DNA from: Opitutales bacterium
GTDB lineage: Bacteria > Verrucomicrobiota > Verrucomicrobiia > Opitutales > Coraliomargaritaceae
Assembly (NCBI GenBank): GCA_018607135.1
Contig: JABBCA010000061.1
Span: 1 to 64,000 of the forward strand
Length of the DNA stretch: 64,000 nucleotides
Direction: 5' to 3'
A program made the translations under genes and the position numbers. Numbering within the stretch: the first letter of the stretch is position 1; every line of letters begins with the position of its first letter. The notes under the pieces are model-generated. The model ran no database searches. It saw only the letters and a list, made by a program, of their open reading frames with translations, and was not told the origin of the DNA. Below, piece after piece: positions 1 to 12,708 of this stretch.

Positions 1-29
1 CCGTATGAGTGGTGGTGTGGGAGGGCTCC

Positions 30-326
30 TCAGTGATGGGGAGTCCTATCCCGATATACCTCCGATTTGTCCATTCGGTCAAATTTGAAAGGTAGGCTTG
101 GTTCTAATTTCTTTCTTCCTGTTAGCTTACGCCAGAACGTTCCCGGCCAGTAGAAAATCCAAAGTGCATATCCCAACGGCCATACGCAAACCGCGACCAA
201 GAGTGTATTTCGAATCGGTGAATCATTCATTCTTTTTGATTCGAGGAAAACATGAATGAGGGTTGCCAAGTAGATTAGCAAAAAAATCAGGTTAACCAAC
301 TCGCCTTCTGTTTTTGGTTCATTCAT
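30..326 (-). CDS. Two-TM hypothetical membrane protein, last cassette ORF in the window
   Basis: This is a protein of about 98 residues that I do not recognise. Two hydrophobic stretches are visible, roughly residues 12-30 and 38-60, the second with a W/Y-rich IFYWPGTFW segment. A basic, polar tail follows (KLTGRKK). I chose the ATG at 326 (MNEPKTEG), because an in-frame start 10 codons further upstream lies inside the palindromic sequence at 335-352. It is on the minus strand like the other small genes left of intI and is separated from the DUF2442 gene by a large inverted repeat, so it is probably a cassette gene. Its function is unknown. Confidence 0.55.
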   Translation of the reverse strand: MNEPKTEGELVNLIFLLIYLATLIHVFLESKRMNDSPIRNTLLVAVCVWPLGYALWIFYWPGTFWRKLTGRKKLEPSLPFKFDRMDKSEVYRDRTPHH

Positions 327-334
327 TTTTTTAG

Positions 335-482
335 ATCGCTCCCCGAGCTGGGGCACAAGTGATGGAACTGGAGCAAGCTTGCTTGCGCAAGTGTAATCGC
401 GCAGTTGCCCCTAGCGGGTTGATGGAGGGCGCTTCGCGCCCGGAGTCGACTCGCTAGGGCGAAGCCCAGCTCGGGGAGCGAT
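335..482. repeat. 148-bp palindromic region with perfect 18-bp arms, possible long attC-like site
   Basis: Positions 335-352 and 465-482 are perfect 18-bp inverted repeats (ATCGCTCCCCGAGCTGGG and its complement). Nested inside are a GGGCGC/GCGCCC hairpin (about 427-441) and CGCTAGGG/CCCTAGCG arms. The structure sits just after the stop of the DUF2442 gene and just before the start of the next minus-strand ORF, exactly where a cassette recombination site would be. It does not share the loop of sites A, B and C and has no clear GTTRRRY core, so the attC reading is an inference from position and fold. Confidence 0.5.
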
Positions 483-503: not shown

Positions 504-752
504 CTACGCCGTCTTGATCTGCCTTAGAGATGAGTGGATGAAGTCAGGTGCGAAATCGGCACCATTCGGCCAAGTCAAGGTGTGACCTTCTAGTGTAAAC
601 TCCTTGAAAAAGTCGATGTCCTTCAGGGGGGCAAACACGGTTCCATCGAGTTCATTTACTAAATCGACTTCGCCTTCGGTTCCATCGCTGAATCTTACCC
701 AGATCCTGTATCCGTCTAAATGCTCAGCTTCTTTAATGTGTGGGAATTTCAT
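504..752 (-). CDS. DUF2442 domain protein
   Basis: This 82-residue protein starts at the ATG at 752 (MKFPHIKEAEHLDG), with the family pattern of an N-terminal 'Y-R-I-W-V-x-F-x-D-G-x-x-x-x-V-D-L' strand and a C-terminal 'L-x-W-P-N-G-A-D-x-x-P-D' motif. An in-frame extension of 18 codons upstream overlaps the DUF4160 gene and is not likely to be used. The start overlaps the stop of the upstream gene as TAATG, which suggests translational coupling. DUF2442 proteins are often found next to DUF4160 proteins, and such pairs have been suspected of being toxin-antitoxin modules. The molecular function is unknown. The ORF lies between two palindromic sites and is a likely cassette gene. Confidence 0.75.
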   Translation of the reverse strand: MKFPHIKEAEHLDGYRIWVRFSDGTEGEVDLVNELDGTVFAPLKDIDFFKEFTLEGHTLTWPNGADFAPDFIHSSLRQIKTA

Positions 753-1009
753 TATTCTAGGGGTTGAATTGGTTCTAGTGGTTCGCGCTGTTCGGCAAGC
801 TTCCAATCCTGCAGCAGCTCATCTTTGTGGAGCTCATACCATTCGAGAACAGCCTTTAGGGCTCTTTTCGGGAAATGTCCAGTAATCACGCCTGTGAGTA
901 TATCTATAGTTACTTCGTATTCACCATACTCTGCATGGAAGTGCGGAGGCGCATGATCGCGATAATACATGCGGATGATGATTCCTAGAAATCTGGATAT
1001 TTCGGGCAT
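752..1009 (-). CDS. DUF4160 domain protein
   Basis: This 85-residue protein carries the DUF4160 signature: MPEISRFLGIIIRMYYRDHAPPHFHAEY, with the conserved 'F-x-G-I-x-I-x-M-Y-x-x-D-H-x-P-P-H-F-H-A-x-Y' pattern at residues 7-27, followed by 'R-A-L-K-A-V-L-E-W' in a helix. It is the first gene of a two-gene unit whose stop codon overlaps the DUF2442 start. The His-rich N-terminus could bind metal or nucleic acid, but no activity is established. Palindromic site B lies about 50 bp upstream, so the pair probably forms one two-gene cassette, transcribed away from intI. Confidence 0.8.
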   Translation of the reverse strand: MPEISRFLGIIIRMYYRDHAPPHFHAEYGEYEVTIDILTGVITGHFPKRALKAVLEWYELHKDELLQDWKLAEQREPLEPIQPLE

Positions 1010-1060
1010 TTTGAAATGCTAAAGCTTAAAAATTGGAATTTCAATTCTTTTGCAGATCGT

Positions 1061-1113
1061 GGAGGATGAGCGATAGATGAGCGCCAGCGAAATCTATTGA
1101 GTCGCTCGACTGG
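1061..1113 (-). other. attC-like palindromic site B
   Basis: On the plus strand the stem is GAGCG-ATAGAT (1068-1078), loop GAGCGCCAGCGAA (1079-1091), then ATCTAT (1092-1097), a five-base bulge TGAGT and CGCTC (1103-1107), ending in CGACTGG. Site A has the same 13-base loop outline (GAGCGnnAGCGAA) and the same end, but a different complementary stem. Unequal arms with extrahelical bases are typical of integron attC sites. The canonical core triplet context (GTTRRRY) is absent. The mobile element at 1111-3560 abuts the site. Confidence 0.6.
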
Positions 1114-1161
1114 TTGAACGAAGCCGCTTCGCGGCAATTGTTTATGTGTAAATAGTAGTGG

Positions 1162-2130
1162 TTGTCATCGTTGGCCGCCAGCAGGATGCTGACGACCCTA
1201 TGTCTAGTAAAAAAAACATCACCAGTAGAGTATTCTCACGAGTATAAGTCAATGCGCCGTTACGCGGAGCATTTGCAATTGCAGGATTTCCGCTTGCGGA
1301 CGATGCAGGGGTATTATCGCCACATGCGGCTGATCTGGCAGCACTTCAAGTCAGACCCCAGTGGATTAAGTGAGGAGCAGCTGCGTCAATACTACGTGCA
1401 CAAACGCACCGAGGGCGGTTGGGCGCCGAAGAGTTGCCGCCAATCTCTAGCGGCGGCGAAGCACTTTTATCGGGGGATGCTGGGGAAGAAGTATACTTCG
1501 CTCGATGCAATTAAGGCACGTGACCGGGAGACCTTACCCACTGTGTTGACCGTGGACGAGTTGCGCCGGCTGTTTGCTCATGTGAAGTTTAATCGTTACC
1601 GTGTGCCACTGCTGTTGATCTACGCCTGCGGGTTGCGGGTGAACGAGTGCACGCATTTGACGGTGGACGACATCGATGGTCCGGGGAACCGACTGTTCAT
1701 TCGCGATGGCAAGGGCGGGAAGGATCGTTACACGATTTTGAGCACGCCGGTCTATCGGCTGTTGCAGGACTACTGGCGCCAGCACAAGAACCCGAAGTGG
1801 CTGTTTCCTTCGGTGGGTCGTGGTCGTTGTGTAAACGCAGCCGCTCGCATGGGTGCGTCCTGCGAGCCGATGCAATCACATGGGCTCGGCCTGCGTCTGC
1901 TGGAGGCCGCTCGTGCGGCGGGGATCACCAAGCAGGTGACCTGTCATATTTTGCGCCATAGTTTTGCCACACACCTGGCGGCAGCGGGTGTGCCGCTACA
2001 TCAGCTGCAGTCTTACCTCGGCCATGCGCATATCGAGACGACGACGGTTTACACGCACTTGATGCCGATCAATCACATTGAAGCGATTGGCCATATCGAC
2101 GGGCTGATCGAGCCGATCTTGCGGCGCTGA
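1162..2130 (+). CDS. Tyrosine recombinase of the IS91-like element
   Basis: This is a phage-integrase-family tyrosine recombinase of up to 322 residues. The N-terminal core-binding (SAM-like) domain is at about 28-110 and the catalytic domain at 125-315. The catalytic residues are visible: R159 (GLRVNE), K184 (DGKGGKDR), H262-x-x-R265 (HILRHSFATH), H288 (LGHAH) and Y297 (YTH). It lacks the extra patch that marks integron integrases, so it is Xer-like in size. The listed start is a TTG; an ATG at 1186 or 1252 (MRRYAEHLQL) is also possible. The stop is directly followed by the transposase start, which indicates a two-gene operon. Tyrosine recombinases accompany several IS91-family transposases. 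Its role in transposition is not settled. Confidence 0.9.
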   Translation: MSSLAASRMLTTLCLVKKTSPVEYSHEYKSMRRYAEHLQLQDFRLRTMQGYYRHMRLIWQHFKSDPSGLSEEQLRQYYVHKRTEGGWAPKSCRQSLAAAKHFYRGMLGKKYTSLDAIKARDRETLPTVLTVDELRRLFAHVKFNRYRVPLLLIYACGLRVNECTHLTVDDIDGPGNRLFIRDGKGGKDRYTILSTPVYRLLQDYWRQHKNPKWLFPSVGRGRCVNAAARMGASCEPMQSHGLGLRLLEAARAAGITKQVTCHILRHSFATHLAAAGVPLHQLQSYLGHAHIETTTVYTHLMPINHIEAIGHIDGLIEPILRR

Positions 2131-2132
2131 GC

Positions 2133-3284
2133 GTGTCGGGTTGCAGGCAATCAATTAGCCTGCGTCCGCAAGCCGATCACTCACCGAGCGTGATGGATGT
2201 GATCGAACACTTTATCGAACCCTTTTGGGCACGGTATAGCGGCTCGATCACTGTGGAGCAGCGCAAGGCCTTACAGGCGACCCTCCAGTGCCGCACCCCG
2301 GCACTGGGTGGGCATCGTTATGCCTGCAACTGTGGCCAAACCCACCATGCGTTCCATAGTTGTAATCATCGGTTGTGCCCACAGTGCGGCGCAGCCGATA
2401 CCGCGCAGTGGGTGCACAAGCAGATGGGTAAGCTGCTGCCCGTGCCTTACTTCATGATCACCTTTACGCTGCCCGAGGAGCTACGCTCCGTCATGCTCGG
2501 CAACCGCCGCGCGATGGAGCTGTTCTTTCAGTGCAGCTCGCAGGCTATCAGCGAGTTACTCGCCGATCCTAAACGCACCGGTTTTGCACGCAGTGGCTTC
2601 TTCGGCGTGTTCCAGAGCTGGACGCAGGAGATGCGCTATCATCCGCACATCCATTATATCGTGCCAGGTGTCGGCTTGACCGAAGACGATCAGCTCAAGC
2701 ATCTGAAAAATCCAAAGTGGCTGATCTATGCCGAGCCGTTTGCCAGACGCCTGCGGACTCTACTGGCCAACCAACTGCTTGATGCAGACCTGATTGAGAA
2801 GCGGCTGTTCTGGCAACTCGTGAAAATGGACTGGAACGCTGCGGTCGATCCCGCCGGCTCGGGTGAAAACGCCGTCAAGTATCTCGGCAAATATGTGCAG
2901 CGCAGCGTCATCAGTGATGGCCGCGTGTTGGCGATCGAAGGCGATCGCGTGTGCATCCGTATCAAGAATCGCGATACAAAAACGTATGAGACGCGTAGCA
3001 TGAGTGGCGTAGAGTTCATCCACCGCTACTTGTTACACGCCTTGCCTGCACGCTTTCACCGTATCCGTTATCGCGGCTTCCTCCATGCCCGGGGCAAACC
3101 TAAGTTGCAGTGGCTTCAACTGCTGCTGGACGCACGCATTGCCAAGGCTGTAGAACCGCCCAAACCCGCACATGCTGGATACCTCTGCCCGCGCTGCGGC
3201 ACGCCCATGCGGCGAACCAGTCGCCACGCACGTGCGCCTCCCGCCGAGCGCAATCAACACTTTTTCAATGTCGTTGCCGCATGA
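2133..3284 (+). CDS. IS91-family HUH transposase
   Basis: This 383-residue Y2-type transposase has an N-terminal zinc-binding domain (C65, C67, C77, C82, C85 in CNCGQTHHAFHSCNHRLCPQC), the HUH metal motif HPHIHYIV (H172, H174) and two catalytic tyrosines spaced as in IS91 (Y250 and Y254 in KYLGKYV). A C-terminal CPRC knuckle (352-355) may complete a second zinc site. It starts with GTG two bases after the recombinase stop; an ATG at 2193 is an alternative. The family moves by a rolling-circle-like single-strand mechanism. The ORF looks intact, so the element may still be active. Confidence 0.92.
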   Translation: MSGCRQSISLRPQADHSPSVMDVIEHFIEPFWARYSGSITVEQRKALQATLQCRTPALGGHRYACNCGQTHHAFHSCNHRLCPQCGAADTAQWVHKQMGKLLPVPYFMITFTLPEELRSVMLGNRRAMELFFQCSSQAISELLADPKRTGFARSGFFGVFQSWTQEMRYHPHIHYIVPGVGLTEDDQLKHLKNPKWLIYAEPFARRLRTLLANQLLDADLIEKRLFWQLVKMDWNAAVDPAGSGENAVKYLGKYVQRSVISDGRVLAIEGDRVCIRIKNRDTKTYETRSMSGVEFIHRYLLHALPARFHRIRYRGFLHARGKPKLQWLQLLLDARIAKAVEPPKPAHAGYLCPRCGTPMRRTSRHARAPPAERNQHFFNVVAA

Positions 3285-3555
3285 CCTCTCGCGATCATCA
3301 GCGCATCGATGCCATCCATCCTACTCCATCTCTGGGCAGGCTGTATCCGCTTGCGCCTCCATTGCAAATGCGCTCCAAATCCGACCGATTGACGCTCAAC
3401 TTCGTGCCTCAGCCCCATTCGTGGAGTATCCGAATTGCACCGAAACACTCCCGATCATCCCTTGGCAGTTCTCTGGCTCTGCTTGCCTCATCGAAGCGAA
3501 AAATAGAAATCGCCTAAGTTCGTAAGCAACAGGCGCTCAGCGGCTTGTTCAACCA
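3285..3555 (+). other. Noncoding right end of the IS91-like element
   Basis: About 270 bp follow the transposase stop without a convincing gene. The last 25 bases (3532-3555) are the right inverted end, GGCGCTCAGCGGCTTGTTC followed by AACCA. In IS91 elements the origin end lies downstream of the transposase and next to a GTTC/CTTG-type tetranucleotide, and CTTGTTC at 3544-3550 fits. Overlapping ORFs in this stretch have no recognisable domain. Confidence 0.5.
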
Positions 3556-3560
3556 TGGTT

Positions 3561-4067
3561 CTAGTTCGATTTTCGCGAGCTCAATCGACAAGAACCTTTA
3601 TTGTTCGCTTTTATACTTTCCAAGGAAGCTCTAGGCATTCCATTACAAAGCATTGGGGTTGAGATCGTCATCCAATGAATCCACGACTTTGTGGAATCGT
3701 CGTATGCATCTAATGTCACACCTCCCCAGGAAGTATTTATTTTGAACTCTGCGTCCATCACGGCAGTGCCAATAATCTTGAACCATCCGCCTTTTCCATC
3801 TGGTTGCCAGAATGTGATTTCCGTAGTCGGCAATCCAGATGTAAAACGTCTAGTAGTATAGCATAATTCTACATTCTTTCCCTTCCACATTATGGTGAAC
3901 TTTTCGATCCAACCTCCAAAGGTGCAATCTGATACCCACGCATCTAGAAGCTCATATGAACTAAAATATTCAGGTGGCTCCACTTCATTACTTGGGGCTG
4001 GTTCGGCTGCTAAGTGACATGCCAAGAGTAGAAATAAAAGCGCTTTGGATAGATGCATTCTATTCAT
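3561..4067 (-). CDS. Secreted hypothetical protein, cassette ORF
   Basis: This is a 168-residue protein that I do not recognise. Residues 1-21 form a signal peptide (MNRMHLSKALLFLLLACHLAAE); a start at the internal ATG three codons later is equally possible. The mature part is rich in W, T and aromatic beta-strand patterns (WKGKNVELCYTTRRF, ITFWQPDGKGGWFKIIG) and has four cysteines, which suggests a small beta-rich periplasmic or surface protein. The last residues are basic (RLSSRKSN). The stop codon at 3561 directly touches the TGGTT repeat at the end of the mobile element, which has cut this ORF off from its recombination site B. It is on the same strand as the other cassette genes. Confidence 0.6.
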   Translation of the reverse strand: MNRMHLSKALLFLLLACHLAAEPAPSNEVEPPEYFSSYELLDAWVSDCTFGGWIEKFTIMWKGKNVELCYTTRRFTSGLPTTEITFWQPDGKGGWFKIIGTAVMDAEFKINTSWGGVTLDAYDDSTKSWIHWMTISTPMLCNGMPRASLESIKANNKGSCRLSSRKSN

Positions 4068-4090
4068 TTAATTTTTCTCTAGCGAACGTA

Positions 4091-4140
4091 GAGCACTATC
4101 GACGGAGTGAGGCACGAACGGAGTTGATAGCTGCGACTGG
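4091..4140 (-). other. attC-like palindromic site C
   Basis: CTATC (4096-4100) pairs with GATAG (4126-4130), flanked by AG/CT pairs with a small bulge, and the site ends in CGACTGG as do A and B. The interior contains TGAGGCACGAAC, a shortened form of the A/B loop GAGCGnnAGCGAA, and a direct repeat ACGGAGT in place of a second stem. It lies between the 33-residue ORF and the secreted protein gene. It is the weakest of the three copies. Confidence 0.5.
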
Positions 4141-4197
4141 ATATACCCCTTCGCTTGGCCCCATGCCCTGAATCTGTGCCATCGCTTCCATGCTCAT
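4096..4197 (-). CDS. 33-residue cassette ORF ending inside site C
   Basis: The ORF reads MSMEAMAQIQGMGPSEGVYP followed by VAAINSVRASLRR, and stops with TAG inside the CTATC arm of site C. There is no strong ribosome binding site (AAATTAAATC before the ATG). It is the only reasonable ORF in the roughly 190-bp stretch between sites A and C, and cassette genes typically end within or beside their attC site, as the neighbouring 137-residue ORF also does. The rest of that stretch (4198-4330) is AT-rich and only holds a 14-codon reading frame starting MKESNSSDWW. Whether either is translated is not known. Confidence 0.35.
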   Translation of the reverse strand: MSMEAMAQIQGMGPSEGVYPVAAINSVRASLRR

Positions 4198-4330
4198 GAT
4201 TTAATTTATTTAGATTGGTTTAAGGTGGTTAGAATCTGAATCTCTTCAATTTTATTTTCACTCAAACCCTAAATCTGATTAGCCCACCAATCACTCGAAT
4301 TTGACTCCTTCATTTTCTGTATATCGGTGA

Positions 4331-4379
4331 GAGGACTAATGAGTGAGCGGTAGCGAAACTCATTGAGTCACTCGACTGG
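4331..4379 (-). other. attC-like palindromic site A
   Basis: GACTAATGAGT (4334-4344) pairs with ACTCATT-g-AGTC (4358-4369), with one extrahelical base and a 13-base loop GAGCGGTAGCGAA; the site ends in CACTCGACTGG. The loop outline and the right end match site B, whereas the stem sequence differs and stays complementary, so the fold seems to be what is conserved. The stop of the 137-residue ORF lies inside the site at 4360. This is what an attC site of a minus-strand cassette would look like, apart from the missing GTTRRRY core. Confidence 0.6.
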
Positions 4380-4773
4380 ATAGATCCTCAGTGCGATCCT
4401 TCAGGAGTTCAAGGACTTCCTCCGGTAAAGACTTCCTGACGAATCGAAATTCCTTTTTTTCAAATTTGATGATAAACGACACTAAATCGTCCTCGACTAT
4501 AGAAAATTGCTCCCAGTTCGCATTCCATTCTTTCTTTTTTCGAGTGATCTGGATCCCGCCCTTGCTGATTTTGAGCGACTGAGAGGAGTTAAGTCCGTCA
4601 TAGATATTGAATATTCCGGCAACGATCAGGCATATCCAAGCGGTAAGGCCAAACCATTCTACGGGAGGTTTTATTTGGTTCAAATAGGTGAGACTGAGGA
4701 TCAGATAAGCAACGCCGCCACCGATTTGCCATTTTCGACCGTAGGGGGCTATTCTGTATTCAGATTCTTTCAT
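4360..4773 (-). CDS. Two-TM hypothetical protein with PH-like C-terminus, first cassette ORF
   Basis: This 137-residue protein has two membrane segments (about 17-32 and 39-57) and then a cytoplasmic beta-rich half: SLKISKGGIQITRKKKEWNA, then SIVEDDLVSFIIKFEKKEFRFVRKS and a closing helix. That pattern is like bacterial PH-type or YcxB-like domains, but I would not assign a family. It is the ORF closest to the integrase, divergent from it, with 108 bp between the two starts, which is the position of the first and usually best-expressed cassette of an integron. Its stop lies in palindromic site A. The base composition is clearly more AT-rich than the neighbouring core genes. Confidence 0.6.
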   Translation of the reverse strand: MKESEYRIAPYGRKWQIGGGVAYLILSLTYLNQIKPPVEWFGLTAWICLIVAGIFNIYDGLNSSQSLKISKGGIQITRKKKEWNANWEQFSIVEDDLVSFIIKFEKKEFRFVRKSLPEEVLELLKDRTEDLSSRVTQ

Positions 4774-4881
4774 CTATCAAGTTATTATTACATTTTGTGA
4801 TATTCTTCTGAAAAATAACACTTTGGAGTATTTTAGACTAGTCAAAGTTATAGTTCATTAGTGTGATAATATGAAAAGAGA
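4774..4881. promoter_or_regulatory. intI/cassette divergent control region with repeated GTGATA half-sites
   Basis: This AT-rich gap would have to hold the integrase promoter, the cassette promoter and the attI site. GTGATA half-sites occur at 4797, 4863 and 4895 on the plus strand and in inverse orientation (TATCAC) at 4886. They form a 15-bp palindrome TATCAC-AAC-GTGATA (4886-4900) over the integrase start and a wider pair GTGATAA/TTATCAC (4863-4869/4885-4891). They could be repressor or integrase binding sites. No LexA-like CTGT-N8-ACAG box and no GTTRRRY attI core were seen. Confidence 0.4.
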
Positions 4882-6237
4882 ATGTTATCACAACGTGATA
4901 TTATGATTAAATTGCCATTAGAAACCTTTAAGTTGTATCAAGCGCGTTTGAATGCGCTTGGGATTCCAAATACTCAACATCCTCATTACACGAAATGGGT
5001 TCGGTATTATTTAGATTATGAGGCGAAGTATGGGCAAGGGGTAGAAAATTCAAAGTTGATCGATGCATTCTTAGCGAAGCTTACGAGTAAGGGGCAGTCT
5101 TCAGGTTTGCGTAGCCAGGCTCGTAAGGCAGTTGAAACTTACTTCGAACTCAGTGATGAGCCGCTGCATGGATCTTCTTTGCCCAAATCAAAATTGCAGG
5201 CGGTTTCTGAGCCGAAGCCCAAATATGGCCCGAAGCCACCATCGGTTGCTAAGGAGCCAGGAATCCCTCAGGATTGGTCTGACTTGGAGCGTGCGATGAC
5301 TGGCGAGATTACCCGGCGAAATTATTCGCCGAAAACATTGAGCACTTACCTGACATGGGTGCGGCGTTTTGGGAATTATACGGGGCATCTGCCAGTTGAA
5401 GCAATTACTGACGACTCGGCTAAGGACTTTTTAACGGACCTTGCGGTAAAAAAGCATGTGGTGGCTTCAACACAGAATCAGGCCTTTCATGCGCTGCTGT
5501 TTCTGTTTCGTCATGTCCTGCAGCGAGAGTATGAGCTAGGTGATCGCGTGATTCGGGCCAAAGTTAGCAAGTATATACCGACGGTATTGACGCGGCCTGA
5601 AGTGGATACGGTGCTGGGAATTCTGGAGTATCCCTACAATTTGATCGTTTCGATGCTCTATGGTTGTGGTTTGCGACTTTCGGAGTGTCTGAGTCTTCGG
5701 GTGAGTGATCTCGATTTCGAGGAAAACCTAGTGATCGTGCATGATGGTAAGGGTAAGAAGGATCGTTCGGTGCCGATGCCGAAGAAGCTTAAGGCGCAAT
5801 TGAAAAAGCAAGTGGGCCGTGTCGCCAAGCAATTGGAGCGTGATGTAGAGAGTCCGGAATTTGGGGGCGTCTTCATGCCCGAATTTCTGGGCAAGCGCCG
5901 CGCCCAAAGGGAAGCGCAGTTGCTGCAGTGGCAGTGGGTCTTTCCAGCTAAGAACTTATCGCTGGTGCCAGATGAGAAGCGCTACCGCCGGTATCATTGC
6001 TATCAGCAGCACTTGAGTTTGGCGATCCGGGCGGCTGTGAAGAAAGCGAAAATAGCAAAGCGGGTCTCTGCCCATACGTTTCGTCATTCCTTTGCCAGTC
6101 ATCTGTTGGCGGCGAATGTGGACTTACGCACGATTCAGGAGTTGCTCGGGCACGCCGATATCAAGACAACCATGATCTATACGCACACGGTGAAGAGTCG
6201 CACGAAGAAAGAGATGGTGAGCCCCTTGGACTTGTGA
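4882..6237 (+). CDS. intI: Integron-type tyrosine recombinase (IntI)
   Basis: This 451-residue integrase has the full catalytic set: R265 (CGLRLSE), K290 (DGKGKKDR), H398-x-x-R401 (AHTFRHSFASH), H424 (LLGH) and Y433 (TMIYTH). Between K290 and H398 lies the additional domain that defines integron integrases, at about 325-380, with QWQWVFPA, the RxH-like RRYHCYQQH and AIRAAVKKAKI; the C-terminus 'VSPLDL' also matches IntI proteins. The usual core-binding domain is at 132-225. Residues 1-125 are an extra N-terminal part, itself SAM-like (TKWVRYYLDYEAKYG, LRSQARKAVETYFEL), so the protein is about 110 residues longer than classical IntI (about 320-340). The start at 4882 could instead be the ATG at 4903. 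It is divergent from the small-gene array, as in standard integrons. Confidence 0.9.
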   Translation: MLSQRDIMIKLPLETFKLYQARLNALGIPNTQHPHYTKWVRYYLDYEAKYGQGVENSKLIDAFLAKLTSKGQSSGLRSQARKAVETYFELSDEPLHGSSLPKSKLQAVSEPKPKYGPKPPSVAKEPGIPQDWSDLERAMTGEITRRNYSPKTLSTYLTWVRRFGNYTGHLPVEAITDDSAKDFLTDLAVKKHVVASTQNQAFHALLFLFRHVLQREYELGDRVIRAKVSKYIPTVLTRPEVDTVLGILEYPYNLIVSMLYGCGLRLSECLSLRVSDLDFEENLVIVHDGKGKKDRSVPMPKKLKAQLKKQVGRVAKQLERDVESPEFGGVFMPEFLGKRRAQREAQLLQWQWVFPAKNLSLVPDEKRYRRYHCYQQHLSLAIRAAVKKAKIAKRVSAHTFRHSFASHLLAANVDLRTIQELLGHADIKTTMIYTHTVKSRTKKEMVSPLDL

Positions 6238-10243: not shown

Positions 10244-10649
10244 GCGCCTGCGATTGGGTGATTCTGCTGGGGCGCGAGCAAGCTCGCACACTACTTTGTC
10301 AATGTTTCATCATAAATAAGATAGGGGTCAGTTTTCAGTGTGTGGCACGTGCTTTTGTGTGAAGCGTTGGGCGCGTATCGATGTCTTGAACACGCACTCT
10401 GTGAGCGGCACGTGCACCAATGGGCTGGAGTCAGCTGTTACAATTCGGTGTCGTCGATTGGCTCACTAAATCGCTGCTTGCAATTTTTGAAAATTAGTCG
10501 ATAAGCTGTGCACACTATAGCACATGTTAGGATTCAGAGCATGGGTAGGGATCAGTAGGATAAAGAAAATTCATGCAGGTATCGCAGTTCAATTCAGAAC
10601 ACTCAAAGCAAAGAAGCAGGCGCTATAGTTCAAAGAGATAAAGAATAAT
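10244..10649. other. Intergenic region with a fragment of the dispersed repeat
   Basis: About 400 bp without a gene. Positions 10274-10294 (GCGAGCAAGCTCGCACACTAC) match the inner palindromic half of the MITE-like copies at 22155-22491 and 37423-37611, so this may be a decayed third copy. The remainder probably carries the promoter and a long leader of the RNA-binding protein gene (AAAGAGATAAAG precedes its ATG), but no clear promoter motif can be assigned. Confidence 0.4.
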
Positions 10650-11072
10650 ATGAATGCAAAGATGTATGTGGGCAATCTGTCCTACGACGCCAATGATGGC
10701 GAAATTCGTGAGCTTTTCGAAGCACACGGCACTGTGAGTGATGTTTTCATCGTTAAAGACCGTGAGTCTGGCCGCCCTCGTGGCTTCGCTTTCGTGACTA
10801 TGGGAACACCTGAAGAAATGAACGCGGCAATTGAAGGCCTTAATGGCGAAGAATTCATGGGTCGTAACTTGACGATTAATGAAGCACGTCCTCGTGAAGA
10901 GCGTCCACAAGGTGGCGGCGGTGGTCGTAGCTTTGGTGGCGGTGGCGGCGGTGGTCGTGGCGGCTACGGTGGCGGAGGTCGCGGTGGCGATCGTCGCGGC
11001 GGTGGCGGTGATCGCGGTGGTGATCGTCGTGGCGGTGGTGGTTATGACCGTGGTGGTCGTGATTCCTACTAA
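10650..11072 (+). CDS. RRM-domain RNA-binding protein with Gly/Arg-rich tail
   Basis: This 140-residue protein has one RNA recognition motif over residues 3-80. RNP2 is MYVGNLSY (5-12) and RNP1 is RGFAFVTM (about 44-51). The last 55 residues are a low-complexity tail of [12 protein letters not shown] and GYDRGGR repeats. Proteins of this build in cyanobacteria and other bacteria bind RNA and are often induced by cold; the tail adds RNA affinity. The gene stands alone between a 400-bp gap and a strong terminator. The two DEAD-box helicases at 51911-55231 have similar tails. Confidence 0.9.
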
Positions 11073-11100
11073 GCACTTCGCTTAATACAGAATTTCCTAA

Positions 11101-11132
11101 AGGGGCTCGTTTAATGACGAGCCCCTTTTTTG
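11101..11132 (+). terminator. Rho-independent terminator of the RRM gene
   Basis: A 10-bp stem AGGGGCTCGT (11101-11110) and ACGAGCCCCT (11117-11126) with a 6-base loop is followed by a run of T. It lies 28 bp after the stop of the RNA-binding protein gene. Confidence 0.9.
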
Positions 11133-11287
11133 GTTCATCGTCACTTTCAAGGGAAGTGGTGCTTGGACAGGGGGAGGTGTCTTATGCTTACGAAAATCTG
11201 CTGCAAGCGGGCTAAATAGTGCCATTTGAGTCGCTACTTGTGGTATGACGTGTTGACAAAGTGACGTCACTACGTCTTGTTGTCCTG

Positions 11288-11452
11288 ATGCCAAAGGGAG
11301 TAGCTAAGAAAAAAGACAAGCGAAAGAATACATCGCTTCGCCTAGATAGCGATACGCTCAAGGAATTGAAGATTCATGCGATCAAGAAGGATACCAGTGT
11401 GCAGCAAATTGTTGAGAAATTGGTGCACGACTATTTAAAACGAAAACGTTAA
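11288..11452 (+). CDS. Small ribbon-helix-helix DNA-binding protein
   Basis: This 54-residue protein, MPKGVAKKKDKRKNTSLRLD onward, has the Arc/CopG-like pattern: a basic N-terminus, a short beta strand (NTSLRLD), helix A (SDTLKELKIHAIKKD) and helix B (SVQQIVEKLVHDYLKRKR). I chose the ATG at 11288, since the preceding nine codons from a TTG-type start look noncoding. Such proteins are transcriptional repressors or antitoxins. No toxin-like gene is adjacent. The following Nudix gene starts 21 bp later with an AGAGGAG ribosome binding site, so the two could be co-transcribed. Confidence 0.7.
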   Translation: MPKGVAKKKDKRKNTSLRLDSDTLKELKIHAIKKDTSVQQIVEKLVHDYLKRKR

Positions 11453-11473
11453 CCGAGATGAGAGGAGTTACTG

Positions 11474-11860
11474 ATGTGTAAAAGTGATTATCAAGTAGGT
11501 GTGTTTCCGGTCACTAAAGATGGCAAGGTCGTGCTCGTAACCACTCGGGGTAGTCGCTATTGGATCTTTCCAAAAGGTAAAACTGAGAAGGGGCGCTGTG
11601 ATCGTGAGGTTGCGCGCGAGGAAGCTTATGAGGAGGCCGGCCTTGAAGGTAAGCTGAAGCGTAAGTATTACGAATTTGACTCGCTCTCAAGTCATGCAAA
11701 GAAGTTGCGTCTTTTCCCGATGAAGGTGAAGCATGTGAAGGATGACTATCCAGAAGCAGGTGAGCGTGAACGCATCATCGTCAGCATTAAGAAAGCCGAG
11801 GAGCTTGTGCAGGAAGATCTACTGGTGGTGCTAAAGACGCTGCAGAAGGTGGTCGCTTAA
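11474..11860 (+). CDS. Nudix hydrolase with charge-swapped Nudix box
   Basis: This 128-residue Nudix-fold protein resembles the diadenosine/diphosphoinositol-polyphosphate class (WIFPKGKTEKG, AYEEAGL). The Nudix box should read G-x5-E-x7-R-E-U-x-E-E-x-G-U. Here it is G35-x5-R41-x7-E49-E50-A51-Y52-E53-E54-A55-G56-L57. The usual Glu and Arg, which form a salt bridge in the fold, are exchanged, whereas the metal-binding glutamates E50, E53 and E54 remain. The enzyme may therefore still be active on a nucleoside diphosphate derivative, but the substrate cannot be told. Its stop overlaps the stop of the convergent MYG1-family gene by two bases. Confidence 0.85.
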   Translation: MCKSDYQVGVFPVTKDGKVVLVTTRGSRYWIFPKGKTEKGRCDREVAREEAYEEAGLEGKLKRKYYEFDSLSSHAKKLRLFPMKVKHVKDDYPEAGERERIIVSIKKAEELVQEDLLVVLKTLQKVVA

Positions 11861-12708
11861 GCGGTGTAAGCTTTTTCGACGAGTGCTTTGAGGCGTTCCA
11901 CATCAGCGCTGGACGTCTTGGCGATGAAACCGCGGGCGTGGGTGAAATGGACGTCGTCTTCGGCTTCAAGCTGTGTGAATTCCATGCGCGTGTCGTCGTT
12001 GAAGCGGCGCATGCCGTAGCCTGTGCCGCGGCTGTCGGGGTAGATGAGTGCAAGCACTTCTTCTTCGAGGCCGAGGTGTTCCACATGATAGCCGAGCCCT
12101 GAGGAGGCTTCGTCGGGCATGGGGTCGGTGCGGGGCATGAAGAGTGCCTTGAAGTTTTGAAACTCCCAGACCTGTGCATGCTGCGCTACGAAGTCGAGAC
12201 GTGTGCGTAGATTGGTAACGTAGTCGACGAGGTCTTGGCCAATCATACGCATGATTTCCCAAATCGGCTCGCCAGGCTTGTGCTCGGTTTGACTGGCGAA
12301 GCGGCGCAGGATGGTGATGTCGAGTGGGGAGTTGAGCTTGCTAAGGGTCTCACGGTCCATGCCAAGCCATTCGGCGGTGTCATTGGGGCCACGGCAGTCG
12401 AACCACTCTGCGACTTCGAGCCAGCTGCAGAACTCACGAGAGTCTTCGTAGATGCCGAGGTGCTGTAGCACCAAAGAGAGCGCGCAGGTGGGCACGTGGT
12501 CGCGCGGGAGCTGATGGTGGTCGAAGTTGTGGAGCTCTGGCTTGTGCTGATGGCCGATATCGAGGACAGCAGTGTTCGCATCGTTGAGGTCGTCCTCGGT
12601 TGGATCGCGACGCTGTATGGCGACGGGTGCTTGTGTGAGCAGCACGGCGCAGGCTAGGAAGTCGTCTTTGTGGGCACCGCCCGGGTGGGTGACTATCGAT
12701 TTAAGCAT
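11857..12708 (-). CDS. MYG1/UPF0160-family protein (DHH-like metal-dependent hydrolase)
   Basis: This 283-residue protein starts with MLKSIVTHPGGAHKDDFLAC, the metal-binding N-terminus of the MYG1 family, followed by AVLDIGHQHKPELHNFDHHQ, which carries the DHH-like motif. Members are related to DHH phosphoesterases, and eukaryotic MYG1 is a 3'-5' exoribonuclease; the bacterial role is not established. An in-frame ATG 12 codons upstream was rejected as start because that stretch is made of the GAACGTCGAACGT repeat seen at 12713-12740, which is a common intergenic sequence. The gene is convergent and overlaps the Nudix gene stop. Confidence 0.75.
   Translation of the reverse strand: MLKSIVTHPGGAHKDDFLACAVLLTQAPVAIQRRDPTEDDLNDANTAVLDIGHQHKPELHNFDHHQLPRDHVPTCALSLVLQHLGIYEDSREFCSWLEVAEWFDCRGPNDTAEWLGMDRETLSKLNSPLDITILRRFASQTEHKPGEPIWEIMRMIGQDLVDYVTNLRTRLDFVAQHAQVWEFQNFKALFMPRTDPMPDEASSGLGYHVEHLGLEEEVLALIYPDSRGTGYGMRRFNDDTRMEFTQLEAEDDVHFTHARGFIAKTSSADVERLKALVEKAYTA

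What the first reader, a model, noticed from the sequence alone, without database searches (positions are those of the whole stretch)
1061..4379. A family of attC-like hairpins: conserved loop, complementary but different stems, no GTTRRRY core
Sites A and B share the loop GAGCGnnAGCGAA and the end CTCGACTGG while their stems differ completely and still pair (AATGAGT/ACTCATT against ATAGAT/ATCTAT), with unpaired bases on one arm only. Site C has a related loop and the same end. Paired change with fold kept means the structure is under selection, as for attC sites that are recombined as single strands. The absence of RYYYAAC...GTTRRRY around them suggests either a different core used by this IntI or relict sites.
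Basis: seen in the sequence. Interest (0 to 1): 0.82.

Follow-up and report, generated by a model that had tools for sequence, protein, structure and literature searches.

The report
Integron recombination sites with relaxed core
The hairpins are the gene-capture sites of a real integron (a bacterial system that collects genes as cassettes) in a Verrucomicrobium; their recombination core is present but looser than the textbook one, and one of them has been entered by a transposon that seems to aim at exactly that core.

Summary
Hairpins A, B and C are attC sites of an integron whose integrase gene follows at 4882-6237. Each site is bounded by a left heptamer NNNNAWC|G and a right heptamer G^WTNNNN, with GAT nearly as common as GTT. 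The right heptamer of a site is the reverse complement of the left heptamer of the next site toward intI: both are ends of one cassette. In related arrays 49 of 78 neighbouring pairs match 7/7 (shuffles: mean 1.7, maximum 7). The array ends at an attI shared with orthologous integrons, stems co-vary, and sites cluster with intI. They are neither relics nor plain repeats. The mechanism is most likely the known folded-bottom-strand one, with a relaxed core. Unexpected, and inside the given coordinates: a 2.5-kb IS91-type element with its own tyrosine recombinase splits the core of A at G^WT. Its relatives split attC cores across Verrucomicrobia; removing them restores the cassette heptamer in 9 of 11 cases (background 4%). 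I found no description of such an attC-directed IS91 group in the open-access library. No recombination was tested.

The parts
4882..6237 (+). intI: 451-aa integron integrase with an N-terminal extension (about residues 1-129) before the usual IntI core
   Evidence: TIGR02249 345 bits, cut-off 265; best PDB match 2a3v V. cholerae IntI over residues 145-449 including the IntI-specific insert; extension conserved in 4 orthologues; low-confidence overall model (pLDDT 51) in which residues 13-91 are a four-helix unit at pLDDT about 80-85
4772..4800 (-). attI and its junction with the first cassette: ATCTATC|AAGTTATTATTACATTTTG (bottom strand read)
   Evidence: ATCTATC is the exact reverse complement of B's right core; C|AAGTTATTA is shared with attI of orthologous integrons in L047, L083, L019 and L104
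4319..4385 (+). attC B: left core GTATATC, hairpin, right core GATAGAT (the + strand is the recombining bottom strand)
4360..4773 (-). gene of first cassette (137 aa, no family)
   Evidence: lies between B and attI, opposite to intI
4081..4146 (+). attC C: left core AGCGAAC, hairpin, right core GATATAC = reverse complement of B's left core (7/7); cassette 4147-4318 carries no ORF of 80 aa or more
3561..4067 (-). gene of the cassette whose attC is A (168 aa, no family); its 3' end runs into the inserted element
1114..3602 (+). IS91-type element inserted in the right core of attC A (crossover G^WT): left end TTGAACGAAGCCGCTTCGCGGC, right end ACAAGAACCTTTATT
   Evidence: right junction GTTCGCT (3603-3609) is the reverse complement of C's left core AGCGAAC (7/7); same left end in 29 of 286 class genomes, reversed control 0
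1162..2130 (+). tyrosine recombinase of the IS91-type element (322 aa, distantly IntI-like)
   Evidence: Phage_integrase; TIGR02249 172 bits, below its cut-off of 265
2133..3284 (+). IS91 family transposase (HUH type)
   Evidence: NF033538 291 bits, cut-off 125; Y2_Tnp and Zn_Tnp_IS91
1052..1113 (+). attC A: left core GCAGATC, hairpin, first base of the right core; the rest of the core is at 3603-3609
504..1009 (-). cassette with two genes resembling the toxin-antitoxin pair DhiT (752-1009) and DhiA (504-806)
   Evidence: both match the NCBIfam models but below the curated cut-offs (83 of 100 and 27 of 200 bits); DUF4160/DUF2442 in Pfam
516..522 (+). right core GATCTGC of the next attC (reverse complement of A's left core, 7/7); its hairpin is truncated or rearranged
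   Evidence: layout from the sequence
335..482 (+). branched palindromic element starting exactly at an attC left core (AGATC|GCTCCCC)
   Evidence: 18-nt perfect inverted repeat; copies

Best explanation
The hairpins are attC sites of a chromosomal integron. Shown from sequence: an intact IntI gene, an attI beside it, an array running away from it with cassette genes on the opposite strand, and one hairpin per cassette. Each hairpin has unpaired spacers next to the cores and unpaired bases on one arm. Each cassette carries the same heptamer, inverted, at both of its ends. Inferred from the known IntI mechanism: when the + (bottom) strand is single, each site folds, the two core heptamers pair, and IntI cuts and exchanges that strand next to the conserved C/G of the core (G^WT read on the other strand). 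Cassettes are thereby excised as circles and inserted at attI. Because the base after the crossover travels with the cassette, GTT and GAT cassettes coexist in one array. The core is relaxed from GTTRRRY to GWTNNNN. Array parasites use the same address: the IS91-type element in A has entered its right core at G^WT.
For: Integrase. Core pairing: 49 of 78 neighbouring pairs 7/7, shuffled mean 1.7 and maximum 7 in 2000, a site's own left core never 7/7; right cores GTT 62 and GAT 50 of 116; where the four variable letters match, 28 GTT pair with AAC and 21 GAT with ATC, never crosswise. Window: C-B, B-attI and D-A 7/7, A-C 7/7 once the IS is taken out. attI conserved. Covariation. Clustering and co-occurrence with intI. 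An independent attC-reader: in G010 a group II intron (Rfam RF02001) sits inside the right core as GA^TCTAC and its removal restores the match to the next left core, the place where group IIC-attC introns insert (TTGT/T; PMC7923331). Literature: IntI1 needs only 5'-GNT-3', and GAT is cut at secondary sites (PMC10127599); only AAC/GTT and the following G are common to attC sites (PMC2727003).
Against: Strict GTTRRRY fits only 11 and strict RYYYAAC only 9 of 116 sites. A and C alone do not fold better than shuffles. 29 of 78 neighbouring pairs are not 7/7; missed sites and inserted elements explain some of these, but not all were checked. No recombination was observed. The assembly ends inside the array, so the array is incomplete. 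The published attC model and IntegronFinder were not run.
Confidence: 0.93

Rival explanations
1. Relict integron: the sites are decayed attC sites that no longer recombine.
For: IS and intron insertions in the arrays, a truncated site at about 480-522, weak folding of A and C alone, some cassettes without long ORFs, intI fragments elsewhere in related genomes.
Against: Heptamer pairs are intact (7/7) in the window and in relatives; intI is a full-length open frame conserved in four other genomes; stems co-vary.
Confidence: 0.08
2. Interspersed palindromic repeats (REP- or MITE-like) with no link to the integrase.
For: Eight lone sites in G010; some genomes without a full IntI hold a few sites.
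Against: Directional arrays, cassette-specific heptamers, attI junctions, association with intI (p = 1.7e-6), GWT-specific invasion by intron and IS.
Confidence: 0.01
3. For the element in A: an ordinary IS91 insertion next to a GAAC tetranucleotide that happened to lie in the site, or an insertion with a 3-bp target duplication GWT.
For: IS91 members are known to insert beside GAAC or CAAG (own knowledge), and the left end reads GWTGAAC.
Against: The right-junction heptamer restores the cassette pair in 9 of 11 copies against 4.3% background. Left and right W differ in single copies (left GTT with right GAT in G078; left GAT with right GTT in two G271 copies), so GWT is not a duplication. 32 of 35 distinct left ends follow T(G/T), as attC right arms do.
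Confidence: 0.12

Closest known systems
Chromosomal integrons (IntI, attI, attC arrays; for example the Vibrio cholerae superintegron)
   Same: IntI family, attI beside intI, one folded attC per cassette, unpaired spacers and one-sided extrahelical bases, cassette-end heptamers that pair within a cassette, G after the left AWC core
   Different: Core GWTNNNN with GAT in nearly half of the sites (sporadic in other Verrucomicrobia sampled); attC sites with conserved loops and variable stems; IntI with a conserved N-terminal extension; several arrays per genome sharing the same attC types (G010)
Group IIC-attC introns
   Same: Insertion into the right core (R'') of attC on the bottom strand; relative found in G010 as GA^TCTAC
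   Different: Not inside the window; what looks like intron ends at the two contig ends (window 1-55; L017 14670-14720) was not confirmed by Rfam
IS1111-attC insertion sequences (ISKpn4, ISPst6)
   Same: Insertion sequences that target one end of attC
   Different: Those encode DEDD transposases guided by a seekRNA (PMC11187229); the element in A encodes an IS91 HUH transposase and a tyrosine recombinase
IS91 family with companion integrase gene
   Same: NF033538 transposase above cut-off; the two-gene layout also occurs in other bacteria, for example Thiodictyon pTs485
   Different: Precise insertion in attC cores at G^WT; I found no report of this in the held papers

Membership tests
Integron | IntI tyrosine recombinase with the IntI-specific insert | tested here: met
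   TIGR02249 345 of 265 bits; aligned to 2a3v across the insert
Integron | attI next to intI, with the array starting there | tested here: met
Integron | Array of cassettes each ending in one attC, genes on one strand, sites on the other | tested here: met
   (window, L017, L047 and others)
attC site | Bottom-strand imperfect hairpin with spacer and one-sided extrahelical bases | tested here: met
   A and C fold weakly on their own
attC site | Strict heptamer consensus RYYYAAC ... GTTRRRY | tested here: not met
   11 of 116 right and 9 of 116 left cores
attC site | Minimal crossover triplet GNT, with cassette ends complementary | tested here: met
   113 of 116 right cores fit GNT; 49 of 78 neighbouring pairs 7/7; GNT as minimal motif from PMC10127599
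Integron | Cassette integration and excision by IntI | not testable with these tools
   needs a recombination assay
IS91 family | IS91-type HUH transposase | tested here: met
   NF033538 291 of 125 bits
IS91 family | No target duplication | tested here: met
   W differs between the two ends of single copies
IS1111-attC | DEDD transposase | tested here: not met
   the proteins are IS91 HUH and tyrosine recombinase
Group IIC-attC intron | Group II intron inserted in the attC right core | tested here: inconclusive
   met in L082 of G010; in the window only a possible 3' end at 1-55, not found by Rfam

The most novel reading that the evidence does not exclude
The IS91-type elements are an undescribed attC-directed group whose IntI-like tyrosine recombinase recombines their circular form with the folded right core of attC at G^WT. 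A transposon would then have adopted the integron's own reaction and would enter arrays as a self-mobile cassette, in Verrucomicrobia generally.
Probability: 0.4. Interest if true: 0.75.

Novelty: new variant of a known kind. Interest (0 to 1): 0.55.

Why it matters
It shows a natural integron lineage in which nearly half of the cassettes use a GAT core, which laboratory work has described as a tolerated secondary site. Comparing it with GTT integrons makes it testable which bases of the core IntI really reads. Tools and primers built on GTTRRRY may undercount such arrays. The attC-directed IS91-type element would be a third kind of mobile element, beside group IIC introns and IS1111-attC, that uses folded attC cores as landing sites, and it could move or break cassette arrays.

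Tried and rejected
Single-sequence folding as proof of structure: inconclusive for A and C. MAFFT alignment of all site types together: it misaligns the 3' arms, so two separate models were built. An unrestricted chain search for cassette heptamers gave many chance chains in GC-rich genomes; it was replaced by a stricter link test with a reversed-sequence control, which still carries noise (GCT and GGT classes), so GAT in other families is judged from individual links lying inside arrays. Rfam on the window: nothing at gathering level. 3-bp target duplication for the IS: rejected. Reading A's right core as GTTGAAC: rejected, because those letters are the IS end. The tandem IS copy in L088 and one G271 copy do not restore a pair. 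Whether the contig-end array (L017, C52:89-90.7 kb) joins the window's array could not be decided. AlphaFold model of IntI: poor outside the N-terminal helices, not used for a fold search.

Full report
What was checked. The window is the first 64 kb of contig C52 (90,719 bp) of a 3.53-Mb draft genome. Named orthologues of its integrase gene are Opitutales / Puniceicoccaceae MAGs, phylum Verrucomicrobiota. Sites A and B are present as described. C shares the layout and the end but has another loop. The strict motif occurs four times in the whole genome, all on C52: two left of intI and two at the far end of the contig, where the region reads as another cassette array.

Reading the + strand, each site runs from NNNNAWC|G through the hairpin to (C)GACTG|GWTNNNN. 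In the near-complete genome G010 (another genus, IntI 71% identical) the array beside the orthologous intI has the same sites between compact minus-strand ORFs. The right heptamer of one site is the reverse complement of the left heptamer of the next site toward intI. Over 116 sites found with two covariance models, 49 of 78 neighbouring pairs match 7/7, against a shuffled mean of 1.7 and maximum of 7; a site's own two heptamers never match 7/7. This is the signature of cassettes: both ends of one cassette carry its own heptamer, and the attC is complete only in the excised circle. In the window, D-A, C-B and B-attI match 7/7 and A-C matches once the inserted element is taken out.

How relaxed the core is. 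Right cores are GTT 62, GAT 50, other 4; left cores are AAC 53, ATC 56, other 7. Strict GTTRRRY fits 11 of 116. The W base stays with the cassette (28 GTT/AAC and 21 GAT/ATC, none mixed). In other Verrucomicrobia families and in the two gammaproteobacterial plasmid arrays that the search resolved, clear array links are mostly GTT, with single GAT links inside arrays of four other Verrucomicrobia genomes. Laboratory work already reports that IntI1 needs only GNT and can cut GAT at secondary sites (PMC10127599), and that AAC/GTT plus the following G are the common letters of attC (PMC2727003). So the mechanism need not be new; the array-wide use of GAT is the variant. GAT-rich arrays in this family lie beside attI sites of different types, so the trait seems to belong to the host lineage's attC pool rather than to one integrase type; this is an inference.

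Structure. On 45 relatives of A and B the named helices pair in 89.8% of cells against at most 44% when slid; the covariation score is 0.358 against 0.172 shuffled. The alignment was fitted to the model's structure, so the counts lean toward it.

Integrase and attI. The 451-aa protein exceeds the integron-integrase cut-off and matches V. cholerae IntI (2a3v) from residue 145 on. Its N-terminal 130 residues are conserved in orthologues; a weak model shows residues 13-91 as four helices, like the core-binding domain that follows, so a duplicated domain is possible. Integrase genes over the cut-off are found in 65 of 236 sampled genomes of the class, many with long open frames, so long IntI proteins are not special to GAT arrays. 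Integrons in Verrucomicrobiota as such are known (PMC8618304).

Sites occur in 15 of 20 related genomes with an IntI-like hit and in 4 of 37 without (p = 1.7e-6); in G010, 51 of 59 hits have a same-strand neighbour within 5 kb, random placement mean 3.3. Lone sites exist, as expected for integron remnants.

The element inside A. Between the hairpin of A (to 1112) and its continued core (GTTCGCT at 3603) lies an IS91-type element with a tyrosine recombinase gene. Its left end GWTGAACNAAGCCGCTNCGCGGC occurs in 29 of 286 class genomes with no hit for the reversed control; 32 of 35 distinct left ends follow T(G/T) as attC right arms do. Where the right end could be fixed by comparing copies or by its conserved sequence, the heptamer at the right junction restores the cassette pair in 9 of 11 cases (background 4.3%), including 5 of 5 in G078. 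W differs between the two ends of single copies, so it is not a target duplication but fits a crossover at G^WT. A plasmid array of Thiodictyon syntrophicum carries an element of the same two-gene layout beside an extended IntI. Which of the two enzymes does the insertion is not known. Known attC-directed elements are group IIC introns (PMC7923331) and IS1111-attC (PMC11187229); no held paper that I found reports an IS91 group, but most subscription papers are not in the library, so novelty here is provisional.

Verdict. Ordinary in kind (an integron), unusual in its core, with an unexpected attC-directed IS91-type element inside the finding's own coordinates.

Noticed in passing
1114-3602; relatives in L068, L088, L110, L113-L115, L120, L139-L188: IS91-type element with companion tyrosine recombinase inserted precisely in attC right cores at G^WT across Verrucomicrobia (and a similar one in a Thiodictyon plasmid); possibly an undescribed attC-directed group.
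   Followed up: yes
335-482; copies at G000 C78:15143, C104:1, C91:62553, C105:47625; diverged copy G001 C67:2072: About 150-nt branched palindromic element that begins exactly at an attC left core (AWC|G). The outer stem differs but still pairs in G001. Weak match to Rfam Clostridiales-1 RNA (35.8 bits, gathering score 48). Perhaps a gene-less cassette with a branched attC.
   Followed up: partly
L082 (G010 C1:10000-29000), intron about 10567-12475 on the minus strand: Group II intron (Rfam RF02001) with a 473-aa ORF that looks like a reverse transcriptase, inserted in an attC right core as GA^TCTAC; removing it restores the heptamer match to the next site.
   Followed up: partly
window 1-55 and L017 14670-14720 (end of contig C52): Sequences resembling the 3' and 5' ends of that group II intron at the two contig ends, which may explain why the assembly breaks in the arrays; not confirmed by Rfam.
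   Followed up: partly
504-1009: Two-gene cassette resembling the DhiT/DhiA toxin-antitoxin pair (DUF4160/DUF2442), below curated cut-offs.
   Followed up: no
G010 C1 and C2 (L047, L082-L089): At least eight attC clusters in one genome on two contigs, with several IntI types or fragments and shared attC types.
   Followed up: partly
L047 11094-12074 and 13310-14290: Two near-identical 326-aa ORFs that look like REP-associated (Y1-type) transposases, with flanks reading GTGGGACAAAAGGGTCAGT, inside the G010 cassette array.
   Followed up: no
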